Shown here in pieces: positions 5,016 through 16,559 of a stretch of DNA of 64,000 bases. Position numbers and translations under genes: made by a program. The notes beneath the pieces were generated by a model. It had not been told where the DNA came from and searched no databases. It was given only the letters and a program-made list of their open reading frames with translations. Positions within the stretch are counted from its first letter, which is position 1. Every line of letters begins with the position of its first letter. Source of the DNA: Botrytis cinerea B05.10. Lineage: Eukaryota; Ascomycota; Leotiomycetes; Helotiales; Sclerotiniaceae. The stretch is taken from positions 2,790,001 through 2,854,000 of the forward strand of contig NC_037314.1 in the NCBI RefSeq assembly GCF_000143535.2, read 5' to 3'.

Positions 5016-5257
5016 TTACCAATCGGTTTGTGTTATGTTCCACTAGTAACATTAATGTTAGTCTTGCTTGCGTCTACGAATACTTGAAGGCTTACTGGAA
5101 TACCTGAATTGCTCACTTCAATGCAAAGGAACTTGCGAGCATACTCCCCCTCCCCTGCTACTGCAGATGGATCCAGTTTAAGCTTATTCTTCAGAATATC
5201 AGATGTTGGCTGTTTGAGATAGTAATGGCAGCGAGCCTCCCGACGCCAATGCTGCAT
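5016..5257 (-). pseudogene. BTB-family C-terminal relic (solo tail fragment)
   Basis: A fragment matching only the last ~50 residues of the neighbouring BTB-family genes. One coding stretch (5257-5096) contains TSDILKNKLKLDPSAVAG and ARKFLCIEV, parallel to SDILKNEL in the 10-11 kb gene and to LQLDSSAMAGIG in the 5.5-6.6 kb gene. It keeps the GTAAGC donor at 5095, an acceptor at 5044-5043 and a 27-nt terminal exon (5042-5016) encoding WNITQTDW and stop. No BTB domain or middle region is found upstream, so the 5' end is lost. It lies just downstream of an intact paralogue, which points to incomplete tandem duplication or decay (inference). Confidence 0.7.
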
Positions 5258-5513
5258 ACTTTACGCTATTTTGAGTTCCTCCAAGGATATCTATGGGATG
5301 AAGTGTTTTTTGCTGTCTTTCCATACACTACCACCGCCACTATTCAATATGAAAACCACTCATATAATGCTCGCGAGTAGTCATGGACTCGCTAGGGGAT
5401 GTAATACTCCACTTTATTTGGAAAAATTTCGGTCTATGGTGAAGTAAGTTGACTTTTGAGTAGAGCTAACGCCAAGAATCTCGATTGATCATCAACAACC
5501 GAGTATCAAACAG

Positions 5514-6648
5514 CTACCAGTCGGTTTCGGTAGTGTCCCACTGCAAGACTAACGTTAGTGTAGAGCAATTCAAGAGTATTAATATGTATAGCATGAAGTA
5601 TCCAGATTAAAATTCCAAGCAAGCTTACCGGTAGTTCCTCGTCGCTCAAACTTGCGCAGAAAAAATGATCGTCGTACCTACCGATTCCCGCCATAGCCGA
5701 ACTATCCAGCTGCAAATTTCCGGAAAGTACCGTTTCTAAGTCGTCTAGAAATTCCTCTTCCTGATCAACCAGTGTTCTAAAGAACTCTGGATGGAAAAAT
5801 TTTCCTTTTTCCAGTACGTTCATGCTAGCCTCCTTCATTGCCTTGAACAATGGCTCATCATATTGACAAGCCGTCGAATGCACTGATTCGTAGGCTATAA
5901 GAAGGTTTTCGAAGATTTTGTTCCTTACAGTCATCAGGGCCTGTTTCAGGGCCTGTTGAATGTTGGGGTCCTTGTTCTTGAGCGGGAATTTAGGTGTTTG
6001 TCTCATAGTACCAGCAATGTAGATAACACAGTCTCTGAACAACAATGGATGACGAAGTTTGTACGCTGACTCGATGAGATCATATGCTTTGTGAATATCA
6101 AAGTTAGGGCTCATATAGAAACAAGCATACAAATTGTTTGATGCTGCTGGCAAACAGCGATAGTAGTCTGCAAGCTTTGTAAGTTCGACCAGTTGCTCTG
6201 GATCAACCTTGAATGGGATGCGATAAATGCAATTAAGCATGGCAACAAATGAGTCGATTTCTGGCTCTGATCTACCTTGCAACGATTTGCTTGGACCTTG
6301 TTTCTATATTATATCCCAATTAGCATTTTTACTCCATGCAAGCGGACACATATCATTTGAACTTCATACGTTACTATCAGCAACAACATGCCATCCAGAA
6401 CCATCATCGTCGACCTCATCGACCCATTCATATGCAAGTGCTGCTCCAGTTTTTGCAGGTAGTTTATCCGGAGAATCCATAAATTTTCGAAAGAAGGCAG
6501 AATGCATTTTGAGTAAAGATGAATGGGCATGAATTTCTATCTTTCCAAAAAGACGAAATCGGGTATCCAGAAGTTGGCCTGGAAAGGCAAACTTTTTGAT
6601 TTGTACTTGGTACTGTGAACCTCCGTCGGAGGGTGCTGATTCTGCCAT
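5514..6648 (-). CDS. BTB/POZ-like protein, tandem paralogue 1
   Basis: Function unknown. Three exons: 6648-6370, 6303-5629 and 5540-5514, all phase 0, total 326 aa. Exon 1 holds a BTB-like fold: KFAFPGQLLDTRFRLFG, then EIHAHSSLLKMHSAFFRKF, the usual 'H-S-x-x-L-x-x-x-S-x-F-F' core. Exon 2 is a helical region with ADYYRCLPAASNNLYACF, LLFRDCVIYIAG and FFCASLSDEELP. The last exon encodes only WDTTETDW. BTB domains commonly dimerise or recruit substrates to Cul3 ligases, but no Kelch, MATH or other partner domain is present here. It shares start position, intron positions and tail with the genes at 7.3-8.5 and 10.2-11.5 kb. The ATG at 6648 opens directly into the conserved fold. Confidence 0.8.
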
Positions 6649-7347
6649 CGCTGCTCACTACGAATGAGCTTTGGAGAAGAAGATTGTTGAGAGAAAGTTT
6701 GTGGAAAGAAGGGACGACGAGGAATTGAAGATGAAAGCCTTAGCGTCGTTGTTATGGCTATAAAGCGGCACGTGAAATTCTACTGAACTTATCAGACCTT
6801 TTTCTGATACTTTCGCATACAAAATACTTTGTATTCACTACAAGCTGTGAGTGAGTTACTTGGTTGATATGATATCGGTCGTTTTCCGTTTATTATTTTG
6901 ATTTGCGTACTCAATACTACAGATATCATTCTAGACTTTTCAAGGGCATTCTTCAAAGCATTACTATATTAGTGTGAATAACACATCGTTTTGTTGGCGT
7001 ATCTGAAACGGCGTACCTCCAAATTCAAATGTTACTTTAAGCTTATATATATATATATAGTACTAACCAAGGAAAACAAATACACATATTATGGATACAG
7101 TATCTTCTGTTAATATCTACTCTAGATAGTTGTAATGTCTAGAATATTTGCCACCATCTAAAGTACGCGAAACATGACTAAAATCAGATAATACCCTGCA
7201 AGATGATTTCACTTGTTGTTGCCTTCAACACCACCCTGTATATATCCGAAGTCGTTACATAGACGGCCCTCATCCATTCGGACTTAAATATCTGATCCCA
7301 AGTATTCGTAAAGACAACATTCATTCGAGATGGAAAACGTGCTTTTC

Positions 7348-8488
7348 CTACCAGTCGGTTTCGCTCGGATCCCACTAAGAAGACAAGTGTCAGTAAGATG
7401 AGAGAACGATTTGCTCGAATTGTAAAGATTGGTGGAGAATTTGTGCAATGCTTTTTTGACTAACAGGGGAATATTTACAGGTAGATCTCTATCAAGCAAT
7501 CTTGCACAATAAAAGTGATCCGTATCATTGGTATCATGGGCGCCGGCTTCGCGAATGAGTTCACACGGTAAACGTAACTCGCATTGCAGTAAATGAGATA
7601 GAGCATTGGCAAATTCGCTGTCGTGCTCCGCGAGGAGTCTGAAGTAACGTGGCAAACTCAGTGGGACTCCCGTTTCCTCAAAGCCAACCTCCCAACAATG
7701 GCCTAGAAGCTTCGAGCGTTCCTCAGTAGGTGCAGATAGCATGAGGCGTTGCTGGGCTTCAACTACTCGTCGATTAATCTCATTGCGTACTTTCATCATG
7801 GTATCGAAAATTACTTTGTTACTCAAATAATAAGCATCACCAGAATCAGAAGGCATATAGCCAGCAACTTGTATGAGGCAATCTTTGAACAGAAGTGGTT
7901 GATGAAGTTTGTAGGCAGTATCAAGAAGTTGTAAAGCATATTCTTTGACGTAATCGTTGTTGCTTTGATCGAAGCAAGCGAAGAGATTGTGTGAGACTGC
8001 CGGAAGGCAACGATAGTAATCCGCCATCCTGGTGACGATAAACAGTCGGGCTACCCAGATCTTATAGGGGATTCGGTATAGTGCGTTGAGCATCTCAATG
8101 AAGACCAGAACTTCCACATCCCAGATTGCGTTTTCTGACAAGGCATTATCGTTTGGTTTCTGTATCATGATCAATATAAGTTGCCATTCAAGTATGTATA
8201 ATCTTTATCGATATCGAAGGAACCTACTGCATGGGATTTTTCAACCAGATGCCACTCGCCATCATCTTCAATCACACTGACCCATTCGTACCGAAATTGT
8301 GCTGACGGCTCTGCAGGCTTTTTGTCTGGAGAGTCAAGAAACTTGCGGAAGAATGCCGAATGGATTTTCAAAATTGTAGAATGTAAGTGAATTTCTGTCT
8401 CATCGAACAGAACAAATCTGGTATCAGGTGTCTGGTCGGGAAGTGAAAACTTCTTGAGCTTTGGGGACTGCCTATCTGTTTGATCCAT
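7348..8488 (-). CDS. BTB/POZ-like protein, tandem paralogue 2
   Basis: Function unknown; second member of the array, 322 aa. Exons: 8488-8228, 8159-7479 and 7374-7348, all phase 0. Exon 1 has KKFSLPDQTPDTRFVLF and EIHLHSTILKIHSAFFRKF (BTB-like core), then an acidic stretch FRYEWVSVIEDDGEWHL shared with paralogue 1 (YEWVDEVDDDGSGWHV). Exon 2 carries MADYYRCLPAVSHNLFACF, LLFKDCLIQVAGYM and HFYCARLLDRDLP. The terminal exon encodes WDPSETDW. I start at ATG 8488; the open frame upstream has no conserved sequence. Same strand and orientation as its neighbours, and separated from paralogue 1 by about 700 bp. All splice sites are canonical, so it looks intact. Confidence 0.8.
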
Positions 8489-10184
8489 GATTGCTCTTGT
8501 AAAGTTTGTGTTGGTAATATTGCTACGGTTGTGGTACTTTGTTTTCGAAGTAGAAGTTATGGGTGTAAAATGTTTCAAGGTAAGAGTCTTGAAGAGGAGG
8601 AAGAGAAGCTTAAGTAGCCAGGCGATAATCGCTAGGTTCGCTAATTTGGCTGGCGTAACGGGGATGCACGACTACTGTTAACAAGCCAGCGTATAATATG
8701 TTCTCTCAGTCGCTGTATTGGTCTAGTTTTTTGGTAGACATTCATTAATAACGATTCCCCGCCTCCCCAAAATGTGAATTCGGATGTTAAATATTCTACT
8801 CGTGCTCATTGTCTCTTGAGGTATCAATGAAGAATAATTGCTACGTGTTTACTTGAATTTCGGGTCAGAGTGCAATGAGAAAGAATTGCACCTCCATGCT
8901 TCTGGCTCTGAATATTATGCTACCAGTTTCTCTGCTAGAGAGCCTGCATTTTTTAATTTTGGCACATATGCCGCTGCAGAGTTCCTGGCCATGACTACGA
9001 AGGGGGTAAATGCAGGCGGTTTCTTGCTTCATTGGAATTTGCTCAGAATTCCAACATCATCTTACCTATCCACTTCCACGACATTTCACAGAGTGATGAT
9101 ATCACTTCAATCTCTGCTTTTGGTTTATCAAAATAACCTATTCCTAAAGGTTCTCACTAGTTAAATTTGCAGCACATCAAATCACCAGAACGTGGATATT
9201 TGATTAATTTGAATACGAATTTCGCACATGTATCTACTGAAGCGGATATGCTTTAGTTCTCCTGTTTTTCATAGAAACATTTTTATAATCCGGAACGTAC
9301 AAATGTTAGGAAATGAAAGCAAAGTCAATCTAGTAGCAAAGTTATAATCTGTCTATCTGTTTGTATGAGAAGAACATGGAAGACGTAGCACCCACGAATT
9401 GCGTGGGTCCTACTTGTCTAATTGTATTCTATCTAAAGAGCTCACTATGTAGCGGGGATAGTAGACTTCAAAAAAGGTCTACTAGAAAGAGCTAGTCTCT
9501 TTTCTTTCGCATTTGCATAGGACTTTATTATAGTAGCCGTTGAATTGAAGTCATTCACTGCGTTCGTATACTACCATTTATTGCAAAGGGCTCTGCAATG
9601 CTTGTCTTTTTAATTTTAAAACTTTCTTTGCTGCCTATTTCATTATTACTTGCACTCTTGCAGCTAACATTCACGGTTGAACTGAGGCCTTTGAAGACCG
9701 CAGTCCTTGAAAACTATGATCGACATACAAAATTGATTAATCATTGAATTCCAACAGAATTTGAATTTCCCACCATCTTCATTCATACAAATTTTGGCAT
9801 CAGGAGAGCACCTGCGCACATTCTTAGCACGTAGATTGATTTTCAAGTTGTTTTTTAATAATACTTTCTTGAATATCCTCTCTTTTCGATTGAAAAGTAT
9901 GAGAACTATGAGTTTTTGGATAAGGAAGCATCAAGTAAAAAGCAAGTCCCCAGTGTATGATATGATAAATATCCCAATCTGTGGAAACCTCTGCGCGTAG
10001 GTTTCCTGTATGTTTGCGAGCACAGCTTCCTAGTTGCACCACCCCAGTAAGCAAACTGTGATCATGGTTTGTATTTTCCGGCACAAGCACAACCGTGAAA
10101 TAGATACTCGACCGAGTCGGAGCTTATTCAGTTTCCTCCAGTACCATAAGCCCAATTCAATTGTAGCTTTATCTAAGGCGTTTC
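8489..10184. other. Intergenic gap between BTB paralogues 2 and 3
   Basis: About 1.7 kb without a supportable gene. Short frames exist on both strands (for example 8838-9164 plus) but start without ATG and show only vague resemblance to a BTB core. The gap contains the hairpin cluster listed at 9385-9502. Confidence 0.45.
9385..9502. repeat. Three consecutive short inverted repeats
   Basis: First hairpin 9385-9413: arms GTAGCACCCACG and CGTGGGTCCTAC, one mismatch, 5-base loop. Second 9460-9483: AGTAGAC and GTCTACT, perfect. Third 9486-9502: AAAGAG and CTCTTT. Three stem-loops in 118 bp of gene-free DNA could be a structured RNA, a MITE remnant or chance; the sequence cannot say which. Confidence 0.4.
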
Positions 10185-11481
10185 TCACCAATTGGTTTCG
10201 TTTGGATCCCACTGATATCGAAGAGTCAGTGTTAGAATTACTTTCAAAGAATGAATTTTGTGACACCATCGCAGTCCTCTAACTCAAGGAGCAAGAAGTA
10301 CATAGGTCTACTATAAATCATCTGAGGGGGGGAGGGGGTTGCTTACCGGTAGATCCTCGTCTTTAATATCTACACACAGAAAATGTGGCTGAACGTCATT
10401 ATTGATCTCCCCAGGAAATGCAATATCCCCAGCTCGTAAAGACTTGTTGAAGATAAGTTCGTTCTTCAATATATCACTAACAGCCAGAGCCAAAACTTCT
10501 GAAGACTCTTCTCTAAATGCCTGAAAATATTCAGGGAGTGAGATTCGGCGATGGTTGGCCCCATCTTCAGTCTCTCCCAATTTCATTTTCTCGAGATAAC
10601 ATATTTCGATATTTGCCTTGACTTCTAGGGCTTTTGAGTTGATTTGTGAACAAAGCTCAATCTGTTGCTGCGTTTTAGATACTTTGGCACATATTTGGTT
10701 ATGTAGCTTTATCGCTAATTCATTTAGCTTTGGGCTTGTAAGCTTTGGGTTGTACGACATCTCAGGTTGACTTTCAGTCCAGTATTGGTGCGCGCTGTGT
10801 TGCCACCTTCCGACCAAGCATATCATACATTCCCGAAAGATCTCAGGAGAACGTAGTTGCAATGATAAATCGAGCAAAGTGCGAGTTGGGCCGAAGAAGA
10901 TGCTTTTGCAGAATACAGGACTCAAAAACAAGGAGCCGTGAATCGATTTTGAAACAACTGGGAGAGCACAGTAATAGTCGGCCAATTCGGTGACCAGTTG
11001 CAAAGCTTCGGTATTCTTAATTGCCCATGACTTCCCGTAAAAAGTGCCGATGAAGTTCATAAAAGCCAATTCATGTGCTTCTCGGGTATCTCGTAGTTTT
11101 CTCGGCATCCAGTTTGAATTTGCGTTGTTAGACTACGCGCGAAAAGTCAGTAAGCTCATCTGTTCGTAAAATCCAAAAACTTACTTTTATATTCCTGGCA
11201 TCGAACAGACTCCAGCTCCCATCATCGTCGTAAACCGTTGCCCACTCATATTTGAAACTTCCAGTGTTTTTACCTTCACCATCCTTATTGTGTAAGTCCA
11301 AAAATCTTCGGAAGAAAGCACTATGGAGCTTCAAAAGCACTGAGTGAACATGAATCTCCAATCCATCAAAAACACTCAATTTAACGTCGGCTTTATGACC
11401 AGGCAAATGAAAGATATGGACAGTTTGGGTTCCTGGTCCGTCCTCTTCTCGTTCAAACTTTCTCTTCCTGACTAGCGGCAT
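10185..11481 (-). CDS. BTB/POZ-like protein, tandem paralogue 3
   Basis: Function unknown; third and longest minus-strand member, 369 aa. Exons: 11481-11185, 11132-10347 and 10211-10185, all phase 0. Exon 1 starts with a basic patch (PLVRKRKFEREED), which could be a nuclear signal (inference), followed by the BTB-like core LKLHSAFFRRFLDLH. Exon 2 has ADYYCALPVVSKSIHGSL, EIFRECMICLVG and a charged helical middle, and ends PHFLCVDIKDEDLP. The terminal 27-nt exon encodes WDPNETNW. It is more diverged from paralogues 1 and 2 than they are from each other, including a longer middle segment (QTQQQIELC region). Intron positions and phases are the same as in the other minus-strand copies. Confidence 0.78.
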
Positions 11482-12946
11482 AGTGAAGATTGTATGTATC
11501 TAGTGACACCGATAGGTATTTAAAAATTCGAGTTGATGATTTTGCTGTTGTTGCAACAGTAGGAGGGGATGTTGATTGCGAGAAGTTGGAGAACTTAAGT
11601 AAACTGTATTTCTGACTGGTTCCAAGTGTCTATCATCCAGTACAGCTTTGTTGAGTGGTGATTATTATTAGTCCTTTTGAATGAGAGCGTAGCTAAAAAC
11701 CTCTTTTGGAATAATTAGCAGAGTTTGCCGTACCCGCGTTCATAGATCTATTACAGTATCATCTAACAGTAAGAGAGGTAAGAAGATGCAGACATGAAAC
11801 CTGACGGCCTTTATCTGTATTCTATCCTGCGTGTTTCAGTATTTAAAACCTTCTGAGTTGGGTTTGATGGATTGTTGAACGCTCTAGCATTGGATTAATG
11901 TTATCTTCTCCTCGTTTTCTATGAGTACTAAAGTCAGAGTGTAAGAAAAGAATAATGGATGGTAGATTGTTATGAAAGAGCTGAATTGCGGAATGAAGGG
12001 CGAAAAATAGATGATCATGTGAGTTTCAGACATATGACTGTTAACTCGAGCGAATTCGTTTCTCAGGTGCATGCTAGTACGTAGATGGCTTCATTCCTTG
12101 AACGTCCTTTCCGTCGACATACATTATGTACTTTCAGTCTTATACATTTCTGGCCGCCATTGACATCTTACATATGATTTAAATATTAAGCAATAAGTCC
12201 CGTGATCTTACCATCATTCTGGATCTGAAATTTCTGCAACAATGCGAAAATTTCAGTACCCCTCTCGTTAAGACTTAAAATCCTTACCTTCTTGTATGCA
12301 TCTAATCAAACCTCCTTGGTAAGGCTCTGCAAGTGAGTTCCCCTGCTCTAATTTTACTTCCATCAATGAATATCTACACGGCAGGAGCATGACTATTTCC
12401 AAACACCACTCTATATGGACACAAATAAGGCGTGGCCGTTACAAATTTCAATCAAAAATCTTAGAGCTACAATCTATGCCTAACACTTTTATGTACAATT
12501 AAAGTGATTAGAATCAACGTGATAAACAACTGAACTCACGCCCCTTAAATGCCTCTTCCCGAATTTGAACATTCAAGCTTATATATTCGAAAGAGTTTTG
12601 GTTGAAGGTAAACAGTTTTGCTGCGGCTATCTGAGCCTCAAGAGTCTTTCCTTCACTAAGTCTAAATTGGTACATTGAAGAGTTTTAGTAAACACCGTAT
12701 CATCCATGAGGTCGTAGTTTCCCATTCACTATCTCCATGAGGAAGGTGCATGTATTTCTCTCTGTGAAAAGCTAATATATCGCTCTTTCCATACACACAT
12801 CTGATTTGTATAGTTCTCGACTCACACCGTCGTACTTTTTCTCCAATACGAAAACATCACTGCCAAATAAATAGCATCCATTATGAAACATAAATTCTGC
12901 TATAGATAATCCATAATAGTATACTTTTTATCAGACTCGACTTAAG
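11482..12946. other. Intergenic, AT-rich, no gene seen
   Basis: About 1.5 kb between paralogue 3 and the SMP-30-like gene. The two genes point away from each other, so it is a divergent promoter region. Only short open frames without family signal are present. Confidence 0.45.
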
Positions 12947-14127
12947 ATGACCGGCTCAATGACAACATGGTTTGCGAAAGAAGTGAGTAGTGAGAGAAAT
13001 GAAATTGATTCATTGTCTGGCTGACATCTCTACAGCCATTACTTCCCAGGAATCTAGACTTAGAGAAAATGTTCGTCGCGGAAGATCAAACCATCCATTT
13101 GATGGATGCGAATGGAAGAGTACATATAGTAGGCACACTAGAAGAATTGCGAGAAAGGCTGCGGAAAGGTGATAATGATTCAATCATCTATACTATTATG
13201 AGCTTTCCATCTCGAGTAGTGTTTTGTGTCGAAGTTGAAGAATACTCGCACACACTCTTCATGGCCACAGAGAAGAAGCTCGGGTTCGTAGAAAATTATC
13301 GTAACATAGGACGTCGAGACTCTCGAGTTGTATTGGAAGAAATCCCATCAAGACGCCAGTTAGGTATAAAAATATCCAATGACGTACATTATACTGGGTT
13401 TAGCGTGGATTGCAAGGGGAGAGTTTGGTTGATGGCCGTTGAGGGGGAAAACTCGTATGGACAACTCTTTAGCCTTGCTAAGGACTGGAAACAACCCATG
13501 CATCGTTACTGGTGTCCCGAGCGTTTCAGCGGAATATGCTGGAGCTTGGATGACAAAACCATATACATACATGAAACCGCGCGAAAAAATTACATACTCG
13601 CTTATGACTTTGATATCGAGACCGGCGTTATTAGAATGCACGAAGAAAGGATATTCTATGAATTCCCAAGTCCCACGGAATATCCACTGGCTTTCGTGAT
13701 AGATTCAAGAGATCATATGTGGTGCGCAGTAGCTGGTACCGGAAAAATTATCAGGATAAGCCCGAAGAGTGAAGTTGTTGGAGAGATTTATTTGCCCGAT
13801 CACCATGAGCCTATTGATCTGCAATTCGTCGGCAACGAATTAGTTATCCTCACAAAAAGAAACGTTGCACAAGAGGAGGTTTTGCTGAGGGGTGGTACTT
13901 ATCATGGATTGGTAATGAATGCCAAAGAAGCATCTCATGGCAACATTTTCACTGCGGATATCGGCTACACTGGTAAACCAAGACATCTCTATAATTTGGG
14001 CCCAGAGGAACTTTCTTTGCTGAAGAAATCTAGACTATTGTTTGAAAAAAAGACAGGATCTTCAGCGGAAGAAGTGATGGACTTTTTACGTACATACCGT
14101 AGGCGCCAACCATCGCCAAATGTATGA
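12947..14127 (+). CDS. SMP-30/gluconolactonase-like beta-propeller, probably inactive
   Basis: Two exons proposed: 12947-12982 (MTGSMTTWFAKE) and 13036-14127, joined by a 53-bp intron with GTGAGT donor and TACAG acceptor, phase 0, 375 aa. A start at ATG 13069 would give 352 aa. The fold assignment rests on propeller motifs: ICWSLDDKTIYIHE, ILAYDFDIETG, FVIDSRDHMWCAVAG, and KIIRISPKSEVVGEIYLP, which match the order seen in SMP-30/gluconolactonases. The metal ligands known in that family do not line up: the S-N-G-L motif reads F-S-G-I, the P-D-G motif reads P-L-A-F, and the R-F-N-D-G motif reads H-Y-T-G-F. The enzyme is therefore probably inactive or has changed function. It has no signal peptide and lies between members of the BTB family. 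Confidence 0.65.
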
Positions 14128-15437
14128 TACTAGCGCTAGCCATGTTTTTGTCACTGATGTTTGCCATTTGTATCGGGCACTGGACGACTTGAAAAGGGAG
14201 ACGGTAGTCAGCATGTGGTGCGTTTAGGTTCCAGGTAGGAATCTCATGACCAGCGGGTTTTATCGGAGGATTTGGAGTGTTAGCGATACATTCAATGCGT
14301 ATAGGTACATTTCATGCAGAGTTGAATAGACTATTCATAAAAAGCATAAAATTGACCGAGGGCTTTGATGGTGATTGAATGCAGTATATCTAAGCCATCG
14401 AAATTCTAGATAGCTAAGAATGATACACTTTAATCCATGAGCCTCAATTTTATTTACTCCTCTTTAAAGTAATGAGTGATCAACCTATCAACCATCAATA
14501 CTTGCCCTCAGAAGGTATTGTTGCATATCTAATAGCTCTACATTGTGAATCTGACCCTGACAAGCCTGTACGTATGTACATGCATAAGTAATGCACCCGG
14601 CCAAAAGCTTAATCCAGATATCAGAGGTCTCATTTATAATTCTCGAATATATCTGTTACCTTCGACTACAATACTCCAAATTCATTATCGTCATATGCAT
14701 AGGATATTAGTTTTGGGAGGGGGGAACATAATCTCCTCGAAATGTGGCGAGTATCTTTCGCGAACATCGTGTGGTCTTTAAAATAGAAGAAGAAAAATAT
14801 TTACATAAAGGATATGTGTTAGGTGGAACACCTTTCGTGGAGCATTTAGTAAATAAATGGTAGCATGGTTAAGACAAGCACGGTAAAGGTCGATGTCAAG
14901 GATAGTATTTGTGGCGTTAAGCCTGCTGCGATTGAAACTCTAGTATTTCTTGAGCCGTTATACACTTCTGCGCTGCAGAAAATGAAACGTCAATTATATA
15001 TTTTCTTCAAACGTCACCCAAAAACAATCTAAAACATCTCGGCTAACAGGAGATCACACTGAGGTCCGCGGAAGACATTTTGACTGAGGATATAGTAGAT
15101 AATGAGATTGATGAATTAAGAACATATGGATTCTAGAAGAAAGCTTAAGTTCGAAAATCTTCTAGAATTCAAAATTATATGTTCTACACTAAACTTAGCG
15201 CATCGGTGGTCAATGTTGGCTCAGTAGACTAACATGTAGCGTGGTGTCTAGGGGTATTTGACGCCTGTTAAGTAATTAGCCCAGTCCAGATGAAAATCCC
15301 AAGGTAAATAAAAAGGGATTGAAAGTTTCGAAAATTGCTGAGCACCGAAAGAAAACTACGCAAAAGACACTCTCGAGCTTATTTAATGCTAGATTCTCAG
15401 AAAGCTACCTCAATTCCACTACCTTTCACGGGTAATC
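14128..15437. other. Intergenic upstream of BTB paralogue 4
   Basis: 1.3 kb without a supportable gene. It includes a palindromic TTCnnGAA-type cluster at 15131-15170 (listed separately). Confidence 0.45.
15131..15170. promoter_or_regulatory. Heat-shock-element-like TTCnnGAA cluster
   Basis: TTCTAGAAGA and TCTTCTAGAATTC form an inverted repeat around GTTCGAAAA, giving alternating TTC and GAA units of the kind bound by fungal Hsf1. It lies about 270 bp before the ATG of the plus-strand BTB paralogue. Binding is inference. Confidence 0.3.
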
Positions 15438-16559
15438 ATGACTTTTCCAACTCCACGAAAGCGAGATGCCGATGGCAACGAGAAGATAGCCGAGCCTATA
15501 GTTCTTCACCAACCAGGCTTCCTTAATGATGTCCGCCTCGTTGTCTTCGGCCAAGTGTATCATGCTCACTCCATCATCCTCAAACTGAATTCCAAGTATT
15601 TTCGGTCAGCTCTAGAATGGGGAGAGAAGCACGCAATCCCATTGGGAAATTTCCGTTATAATTTTACCTCTGTAGTTGATGAAGATGGATTTTGGCTTAT
15701 GGAACTAATCAAATCGGTACGCACATAGCAATCCAAGACGACAAATTCTTTCTAGACGACAAACGCTAATCTATCGTAGGCTTCAAACTTCGGCAACCAC
15801 ACGAATACAAACAAATTAAGAGTCCCGCAAACCGAGGAAGGAGAAAGACGTGCTTTCGAAGCTGTACTTTTTGCTTTTTACAACAGGCCATACATCATTC
15901 ACGGCTATGAGAATTTCAAGGACATCTTCCGCTCGGCTGATTCCTTGTGTGCTCGTCCTGCTCTTTCACATACTTTGGATTCAGCATTTCATAGAAGTCC
16001 TGGATTTACTGATACAATTTGCCAAAACAGCGATGCATTGATTCGAATCGCTAAAGAGCTCCATCACCCTGTGCTCTTCCGAGAGTGTTTAATTTATGTT
16101 GTTTCGAAAGCAAGCAGTACCGCTTGCAAAGAACAGTGGCAATCAAAGTTCGACGATGATGAAGATATCAAATCTTGTTTTCTAAAAGCACTCCAGAGTG
16201 TTGACTCCACACGAAATTTAGTCGATAGAGGGATCGAAACTTTTAGCAAAGATTCGAGGGCTTGGCAAGAAATGCTGATGGTGAAAGACGGTATGATGGA
16301 TGGTACACTGGAGTACCAAAGTGCTACATATTACCGAGAAGTGATGAACCGTTTGGAAGCTAAAGAATTGAAAAACATCACTATGCAGTGGTATCAAAGT
16401 TTTCTAACTTTATTGTCAAGCAACTTGGCTCTTGACCGAAATTTAGGCCGTGTCGGCGAGGAAAGAAGCCCTGGCACACAGAGTAACAAAAATGGCTTTT
16501 TTTGTGTTAGAATTCGGGATGAAGATCTCCCATGGGATCAGAATATTGTGGACTGGTAA
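15438..16559 (+). CDS. BTB/POZ-like protein, divergent plus-strand paralogue 4
   Basis: Function unknown, 352 aa, two exons: 15438-15716 and 15780-16559 (phase 0). Exon 1 gives PIVLHQPGFLNDVRLVVFG then HAHSIILKLNSKYFRSAL, the BTB-like core, and NFTSVVDEDGFWLM, parallel to the acidic stretch of the minus-strand copies. Exon 2 has a different first third (EAVLFAFYNRPYIIHGYENF), then HHPVLFRECLIYVV and FFCVRIRDEDLP. It runs straight into WDQNIVDW and stop with no intron, whereas the three minus-strand copies have an intron exactly between LP and W. Intron 1 is at the shared position. The gene is on the opposite strand and 4 kb away, and is clearly the most diverged member. Confidence 0.78.

What the first reader, a model, noticed from the sequence alone, without database searches (positions are those of the whole stretch)
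5016..16559. Local array of a BTB-like gene family with no recognised partner domain
Four genes and one fragment share a BTB-like core (H-S-x-x-L-K-x-H-S-A-F-F-R), a helical middle and a conserved C-terminus, within 11.5 kb. Three genes are tandem on the minus strand with identical intron positions. This looks like a fast-evolving family built by local duplication. None of the members has Kelch, MATH, NPH3 or ankyrin domains. BTB adaptors are known to act in Cul3 ubiquitination, but nothing ties this family to it. It is my best candidate for an undescribed system.
Basis: partly seen in the sequence, partly recalled or inferred. Interest (0 to 1): 0.75.

Follow-up and report, generated by a model that had tools for sequence, protein, structure and literature searches.

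The report
Clustered fungal BTB genes, function unknown
A grey-mould fungus carries four neighbouring genes, plus a leftover piece of a fifth, for an old fungal version of the common BTB protein-docking module; they are real and conserved, but a variant of a known kind rather than a new system.

Summary
Window 5016-16559 (Botrytis cinerea B05.10, chromosome 5) has four BTB genes (B, C, D minus; E plus) and a 3'-end fragment. B, C, D share two phase-0 introns; E only the first. AlphaFold gives a BTB fold followed by loosely BACK-like helices; Pfam BTB passes its cut-off in B, C, E, not D.

All but one organism named in the hits is leotiomycete (partly recall). The copies are old: C, D and E orthologues recur on shared contigs in other Botrytis, and B, C, D separated before Botrytis and Monilinia parted. 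Searches for a paper on the family found none.

Cul3 is in the genome, but the Cul3-docking phi-x-E motif is missing in 46 of 52 readable rows, usually replaced by an FLDSPDK-type loop; the six exceptions are E-lineage. Seven of eight other BTB loci of the genome keep it (by eye). Best guess: BTB scaffolds or adaptors using the Cul3-side surface with altered contacts. A new variant of a known kind; function untested.

The parts
5016..5260 (-). 3'-end fragment of a further family member: last part of the penultimate exon, terminal intron and 8-codon last exon
   Evidence: family HMM 24.1 bits, E 1.9e-6; splice pieces read apart
5514..6648 (-). gene B, 326 aa, exons 6648-6370, 6303-5629, 5540-5514; BTB + BACK-like helices + tail
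   Evidence: Pfam BTB 27.8 bits; orthologue P0012 in B. deweyae, 69%
7348..8488 (-). gene C, 322 aa, exons 8488-8228, 8159-7479, 7374-7348
   Evidence: Pfam BTB 21.1 bits; orthologues; AlphaFold of the 98% identical P0001, pLDDT 90.6
10185..11481 (-). gene D, 369 aa, exons 11481-11185, 11132-10347, 10211-10185; N-terminal RKRK basic motif
   Evidence: Pfam BTB 18.8 bits, under the 20.5 cut-off; orthologues; AlphaFold of its B. deweyae orthologue P0037, pLDDT 82.9
15438..16559 (+). gene E, 352 aa, exons 15438-15716, 15780-16559; = BCIN_05g07970
   Evidence: identical to P0020; Pfam BTB 26.7 bits
13009..14127 (+). unrelated neighbour between D and E (open frame): SMP-30/gluconolactonase-like (SGL) protein, not a family member
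   Evidence: open frame; PF08450 71.2 bits

Best explanation
The genes encode intracellular BTB-BACK-like scaffold or adaptor proteins. Shown here by prediction and comparison: an N-terminal BTB fold with a family-specific inserted beta-hairpin (FxYEWxxxxDxDGxW), following helices that resemble BACK, a variable helical middle and a conserved C-terminal tail (DEDLPWDxxExDW). Inferred: the BTB dimerises, and the most conserved stretch, SAFFRKFLDSPD (the helix before the phi-x-E site and the start of the following loop), holds a conserved partner at the place where KLHL3-type proteins hold Cul3, but with different contacts because phi-x-E is gone. The Trp/Asp tail, predicted with good confidence, either packs on the core or is a second docking site. 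D-lineage proteins may act in the nucleus (N-terminal KKRKLD-type motif). The paralogues would then differ in client or place rather than in basic mechanism.
Against: No interaction, localisation or expression data were available. Dimerisation was not modelled. The part after BTB aligns only loosely (rmsd 4.2-5.8). BTB transcription factors (NAC1, BCL6, Bach2) score much the same over the BTB part (7.8-8.3), so the fold alone picks no mechanism. The basic-motif pattern was chosen after looking at the sequences, 12 of its 19 rows are the related D lineage, and B, C and E lack it. From recall, some Cul3 partners bind without phi-x-E, so its loss does not exclude Cul3. The eight control loci were the top BTB scorers, which favours canonical ones.
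Confidence: 0.42

Rival explanations
1. They are ordinary Cul3 substrate adaptors: BTB plus 3-box bind Cul3, and the variable helical middle or tail binds the target for ubiquitination.
For: A Cul3 gene is in the genome. The structures that align past the BTB into the following helices include Cul3 adaptors (KEAP1, SPOP, A55, KBTBD2). In Neurospora BTB1 (NCU04838) binds Cul3 by immunoprecipitation (PMC2996332, passages). The family's most conserved stretch lies in the region that makes interface region i in KLHL3-Cul3 (my mapping). Some E-lineage rows do have a phi-x-E-like WGE.
Against: phi-x-E, whose E85A change in KLHL3 severely disrupted Cul3 binding (PMC3616122, passages), is missing in 46 of 52 rows, while 7 of 8 other BTB loci of this genome keep it. 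No known substrate-binding domain.
Confidence: 0.35
2. A birth-and-death family with little present function: copies duplicate, diverge and decay.
For: The fragment at 5016-5260 and a decayed copy at C12:1050.4-1050.9 kb with a stop inside; low identity between paralogues; a separate adjacent pair in Phlyctema. Some public models are short or lack the tail, which may be annotation or decay.
Against: C and D orthologues occur across Botrytis and also in Monilinia (C also in Sclerotinia and Ciborinia, D also in Clarireedia), E across Botrytis, mostly with full length, and the loop and tail are among the better conserved parts.
Confidence: 0.15
3. Secreted effectors used during plant infection.
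Against: No hydrophobic N-terminal stretch in B, C, D or E by eye (no predictor was run); a relative occurs in the onygenalean Helicocarpus griseus, not a plant pathogen as far as I recall.
Confidence: 0.03

Closest known systems
BTB-BACK Cul3 adaptors (KEAP1, KLHL3, SPOP, KBTBD2, vaccinia A55)
   Same: BTB fold followed by helices that align loosely with BACK/3-box
   Different: No Kelch or MATH domain by Pfam; inserted hairpin inside BTB; phi-x-E loop mostly replaced by FLDSPDK type; Trp/Asp tail
NPR1 (plant BTB-BACK-ankyrin coactivator)
   Same: The only two Foldseek matches at E 0.001 or better, 4.5e-4 and 7.8e-4; weak profile match to its BTB, E 0.12-0.22
   Different: No ankyrin repeats by Pfam; TM-score only 0.22-0.28 with rmsd 14-17 in the NPR1 rows
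Other B. cinerea BTB genes (34 PF00651 places, a lower bound)
   Same: Same Pfam domain, same genome
   Different: None of the 34 places lies in this array; 7 of the 8 examined keep phi-x-E
Neurospora crassa BTB1 (NCU04838)
   Same: Fungal BTB protein (PMC2996332, passages)
   Different: Binds Cul3 experimentally; its sequence was not fetched or compared here

Membership tests
BTB/POZ superfamily | Pfam PF00651 match at curated cut-off (20.5 bits) | tested here: met
   B 27.8, C 21.1, E 26.7; D 18.8 falls short on its own
BTB/POZ superfamily | BTB fold | tested here: met
BTB-BACK proteins | BACK/3-box helical hairpins directly after BTB | tested here: inconclusive
   A55, SPOP, KBTBD2, KEAP1 and NPR1 alignments run past the BTB with rmsd 4.2-5.8; no Pfam BACK hit
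Cul3 substrate adaptors | phi-x-E motif in the alpha3/beta4 loop | tested here: not met
   Missing in 46 of 52 readable rows, among them B, C and D; the six matches (E and P0020 being one protein) are E-lineage, where 3 of 9 rows also lack it. For E alone: inconclusive
Cul3 substrate adaptors | Cul3 present in the same organism | tested here: met
   C3:2959670-2961793, best PDB match Cullin-3, E 9.8e-115, next Cullin-4A 1.2e-76
Cul3 substrate adaptors | Physical binding to Cul3 and to a substrate | not testable with these tools
   needs an experiment
BTB-Kelch, MATH-BTB, BTB-NPH3, BTB-ankyrin | the second named domain | tested here: not met
   Pfam scan of B, C, D, E at E up to 10 shows none
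Secreted effectors | signal peptide | not tested
   only read by eye; no predictor available

The most novel reading that the evidence does not exclude
A mainly leotiomycete BTB-BACK-like family that has given up standard Cul3 docking and turned the same surface (SAFFRKFLDSPD) to a different, conserved partner, with D-lineage members acting in the nucleus and a Trp/Asp tail as second contact: a Cul3-independent BTB adaptor class in fungi.
Probability: 0.3. Interest if true: 0.5.

Novelty: new variant of a known kind. Interest (0 to 1): 0.32.

Why it matters
A 2005 survey of BTB proteins counted only five and six in the two yeasts (PMC1257465, passages), and my searches turned up little on BTB proteins of filamentous fungi beyond Neurospora BTB1 and mentions in lists of domains. 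A conserved family whose Cul3-side loop has been rewritten gives a simple way to ask whether such fungal BTB proteins work through Cul3 at all. It also shows an annotation trap: a six-frame Pfam BTB search lists none of the array's genes, and at least one public gene model drops the 8-codon last exon.

Tried and rejected
Recent tandem burst: rejected by the tree and by locus-tag neighbours in other species. dN/dS among paralogues: NG86 dS was 2.7-3.2 for three pairs and undefined for three; fourfold sites of shared residues differ in 24 of 45 for B-C (random expectation 0.73), so B-C is not wholly saturated, but the value is too rough to use. Sequence search of PDB with B gave nothing; profiles gave only weak BTB matches. 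Literature: nine searches answered (one search was on Cul3 structures). None of the titles or abstract starts listed pointed to this family, and a search by BCIN_05g locus tags found 0 papers. Papers seen as passages only: PMC5987419, PMC4738786, PMC2996332, PMC1257465, PMC3158057, PMC3616122, PMC10564622, PMC5737690, PMC7550596. PMC5987419 names two other B. cinerea BTB/POZ genes (Bcin01g10190, Bcin10g02020), not these. The C-terminal third of the models was barely tested against known folds, so no claim is made on its fold. The phi-x-E count covered 59 rows: four had no FFR/YFR, three (P0005, P0009, P0044) had matched a later YFR and were dropped by hand, leaving 52. The basic-motif count covered 59 rows: three near-duplicates left out by choice, 11 without a recognisable end of the N-terminal tail, leaving 45.

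Full report
What is there. The window is C5:2790001-2854000 of a 42.63 Mb, 18-contig genome. I rebuilt four genes: B (326 aa), C (322 aa), D (369 aa) on the minus strand and E (352 aa) on the plus strand. Each has intron 1, phase 0. B, C and D have a second phase-0 intron that leaves an 8-codon last exon; E has that segment uninterrupted. A fragment at 5016-5260 keeps the end of the penultimate exon, the terminal intron and the last exon. A family HMM finds nine open stretches in the window, all in these genes and the fragment, and no match in 20 shuffled sets. An SMP-30/gluconolactonase-like gene lies between D and E.

Relatedness. B and C are 41% identical, the other pairs 27-30%. Two more intact-looking members lie elsewhere in the genome: C4:1803.6-1804.6 kb and C12:1048.5-1049.9 kb. 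Both have a phase-0 intron in the same loop as intron 1; the C12 gene has a further intron upstream. Beside the C12 gene is a decayed copy on the other strand, with a stop inside, whose terminal intron is still readable by eye before the last exon. So intron 1 is common to the six readable members, and the terminal intron is probably ancestral and lost in E, C4 and C12 (inference). These genome searches score only the best candidates, so the member count is a lower bound.

Distribution and age. Three protein searches gave 19, 34 and 21 hits, 53 different proteins. Of the organisms named, ten species, genera or families were looked up: nine are Leotiomycetes, order Helotiales, and Helicocarpus griseus is a eurotiomycete; Botrytis/Botryotinia, Sclerotinia, Monilinia and Ciborinia are Leotiomycetes by recall. 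The searches need shared 5-residue words, so absence elsewhere is not shown. Locus tags on contigs of equal length suggest that the array is conserved: B. deweyae EAE98_009952 (D), 9953 (C), 9954 (B); B. aclada EAE96_001884 (E), 1886 (D), 1887 (C); D and E two steps apart in B. hyacinthi, B. porri, B. tulipae and B. paeoniae; C and E three steps apart in B. elliptica; C and D adjacent in Monilinia vaccinii-corymbosi. That DNA was not seen. In a tree of 43 rows, B groups with P0012 as sister to all C rows, Monilinia included (100/99); D groups with Monilinia and Clarireedia (100/100); E lies across a branch (97/98) from a 31-row set holding B, C, D and members from other genera. The root is a midpoint, several branches are long and nine inner branches are drawn open. 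B, C and D therefore separated before Botrytis and Monilinia did, and E apparently earlier. B and C are consistent with an old local duplication; the two adjacent Phlyctema genes form their own pair (98/94). The only B orthologue found was that of B. deweyae.

Rate. C is 69% identical to its Sclerotinia nivalis orthologue, against a median of 84.0% for B. cinerea-S. sclerotiorum best-hit pairs (PMC3158057, passages). The species is not the same and it is one gene, so this is only a rough sign of faster than median change. Within-array dS is too large to use.

Cul3 test. The genome search lists cullin matches on C3, C15 and C8 and a partial one on C15; the C3 one is Cul3 and the C15:1262705 one Cul1 by best PDB match; the others were not assigned. 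In KLHL3 the phi-x-E motif in the alpha3/beta4 loop contacts Cul3, and E85A severely disrupts binding (PMC3616122, passages). A weak profile alignment to KBTBD4 (E 0.21) puts its L-K-E, which I read as phi-x-E, opposite d-k-k of the family. By pattern 6 of 55 rows match; after dropping three rows matched at a wrong site, 6 of 52, all E-lineage, E and P0020 being the same protein; 42 of the 52 have an FLD/FMD-type loop start. Three of nine E-lineage rows lack the motif, so it is not fixed there either. As a control, seven of eight other BTB loci of the genome show phi-x-E in that place by eye, L001 being the exception. Those eight were the highest BTB scorers, which favours canonical ones.

Conserved surfaces. 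The most conserved 12 residues across 50 rows are SAFFRKFLDSPD (3.66 bits, mean 2.16); the inserted hairpin region (2.77) and the tail (2.49) are also above the mean, the helical middle (1.55) below. An LPWD..DW-type tail ends 41 of 59 rows. Of the 18 misses several are short or misread models: P0035 reads into the terminal intron, and P0051 ends LPWDVKQEYW, which the pattern did not admit. An N-terminal basic motif of the KKRK type occurs in 19 of 45 usable tails against 2.4 expected from shuffling; 12 are D-lineage and so not independent, the others are C12, P0006 (weak), P0016, P0017, P0030, P0034 and P0049. The pattern was chosen after seeing the sequences. That it is a nuclear import signal is inference.

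Verdict. A real, conserved BTB family without a name in the searches run, mainly leotiomycete; a variant of a known kind. The strongest new point is the rewritten Cul3-side loop. Function stays open: Cul3-independent scaffold 0.42, Cul3 adaptor 0.35, decaying family 0.15, secreted effector 0.03.

Noticed in passing
10185-10211: The 8-codon last exon is easily missed: a public B. cinerea D protein (P0035) reads into the intron and lacks the Trp tail; P0041 in another species may do the like.
   Followed up: partly
C12:1048.5-1051 kb (L033): A divergent pair of family copies, one intact-looking on minus, one decayed on plus with its terminal intron still readable.
   Followed up: partly
C4:1803.6-1804.6 kb (L034 3561-4598): A further intact-looking family member with intron 1 only.
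   Followed up: partly
13009-14127: SMP-30/gluconolactonase-like gene between D and E; the one-tag gap between D and E in several other Botrytis would fit its being there too, but was not checked.
   Followed up: partly
P0026, P0027, P0051 (Lachnellula): These relatives carry long Ser/Thr-rich N-terminal extensions with GLF/FG-type pieces, like nucleoporin repeats by eye; fusion or gene-model error not decided.
   Followed up: no
whole genome, PF00651: Six-frame Pfam BTB search lists 34 places in the genome (a lower bound) and none of the array's genes, probably because the inserted hairpin and the intron split the domain.
   Followed up: partly
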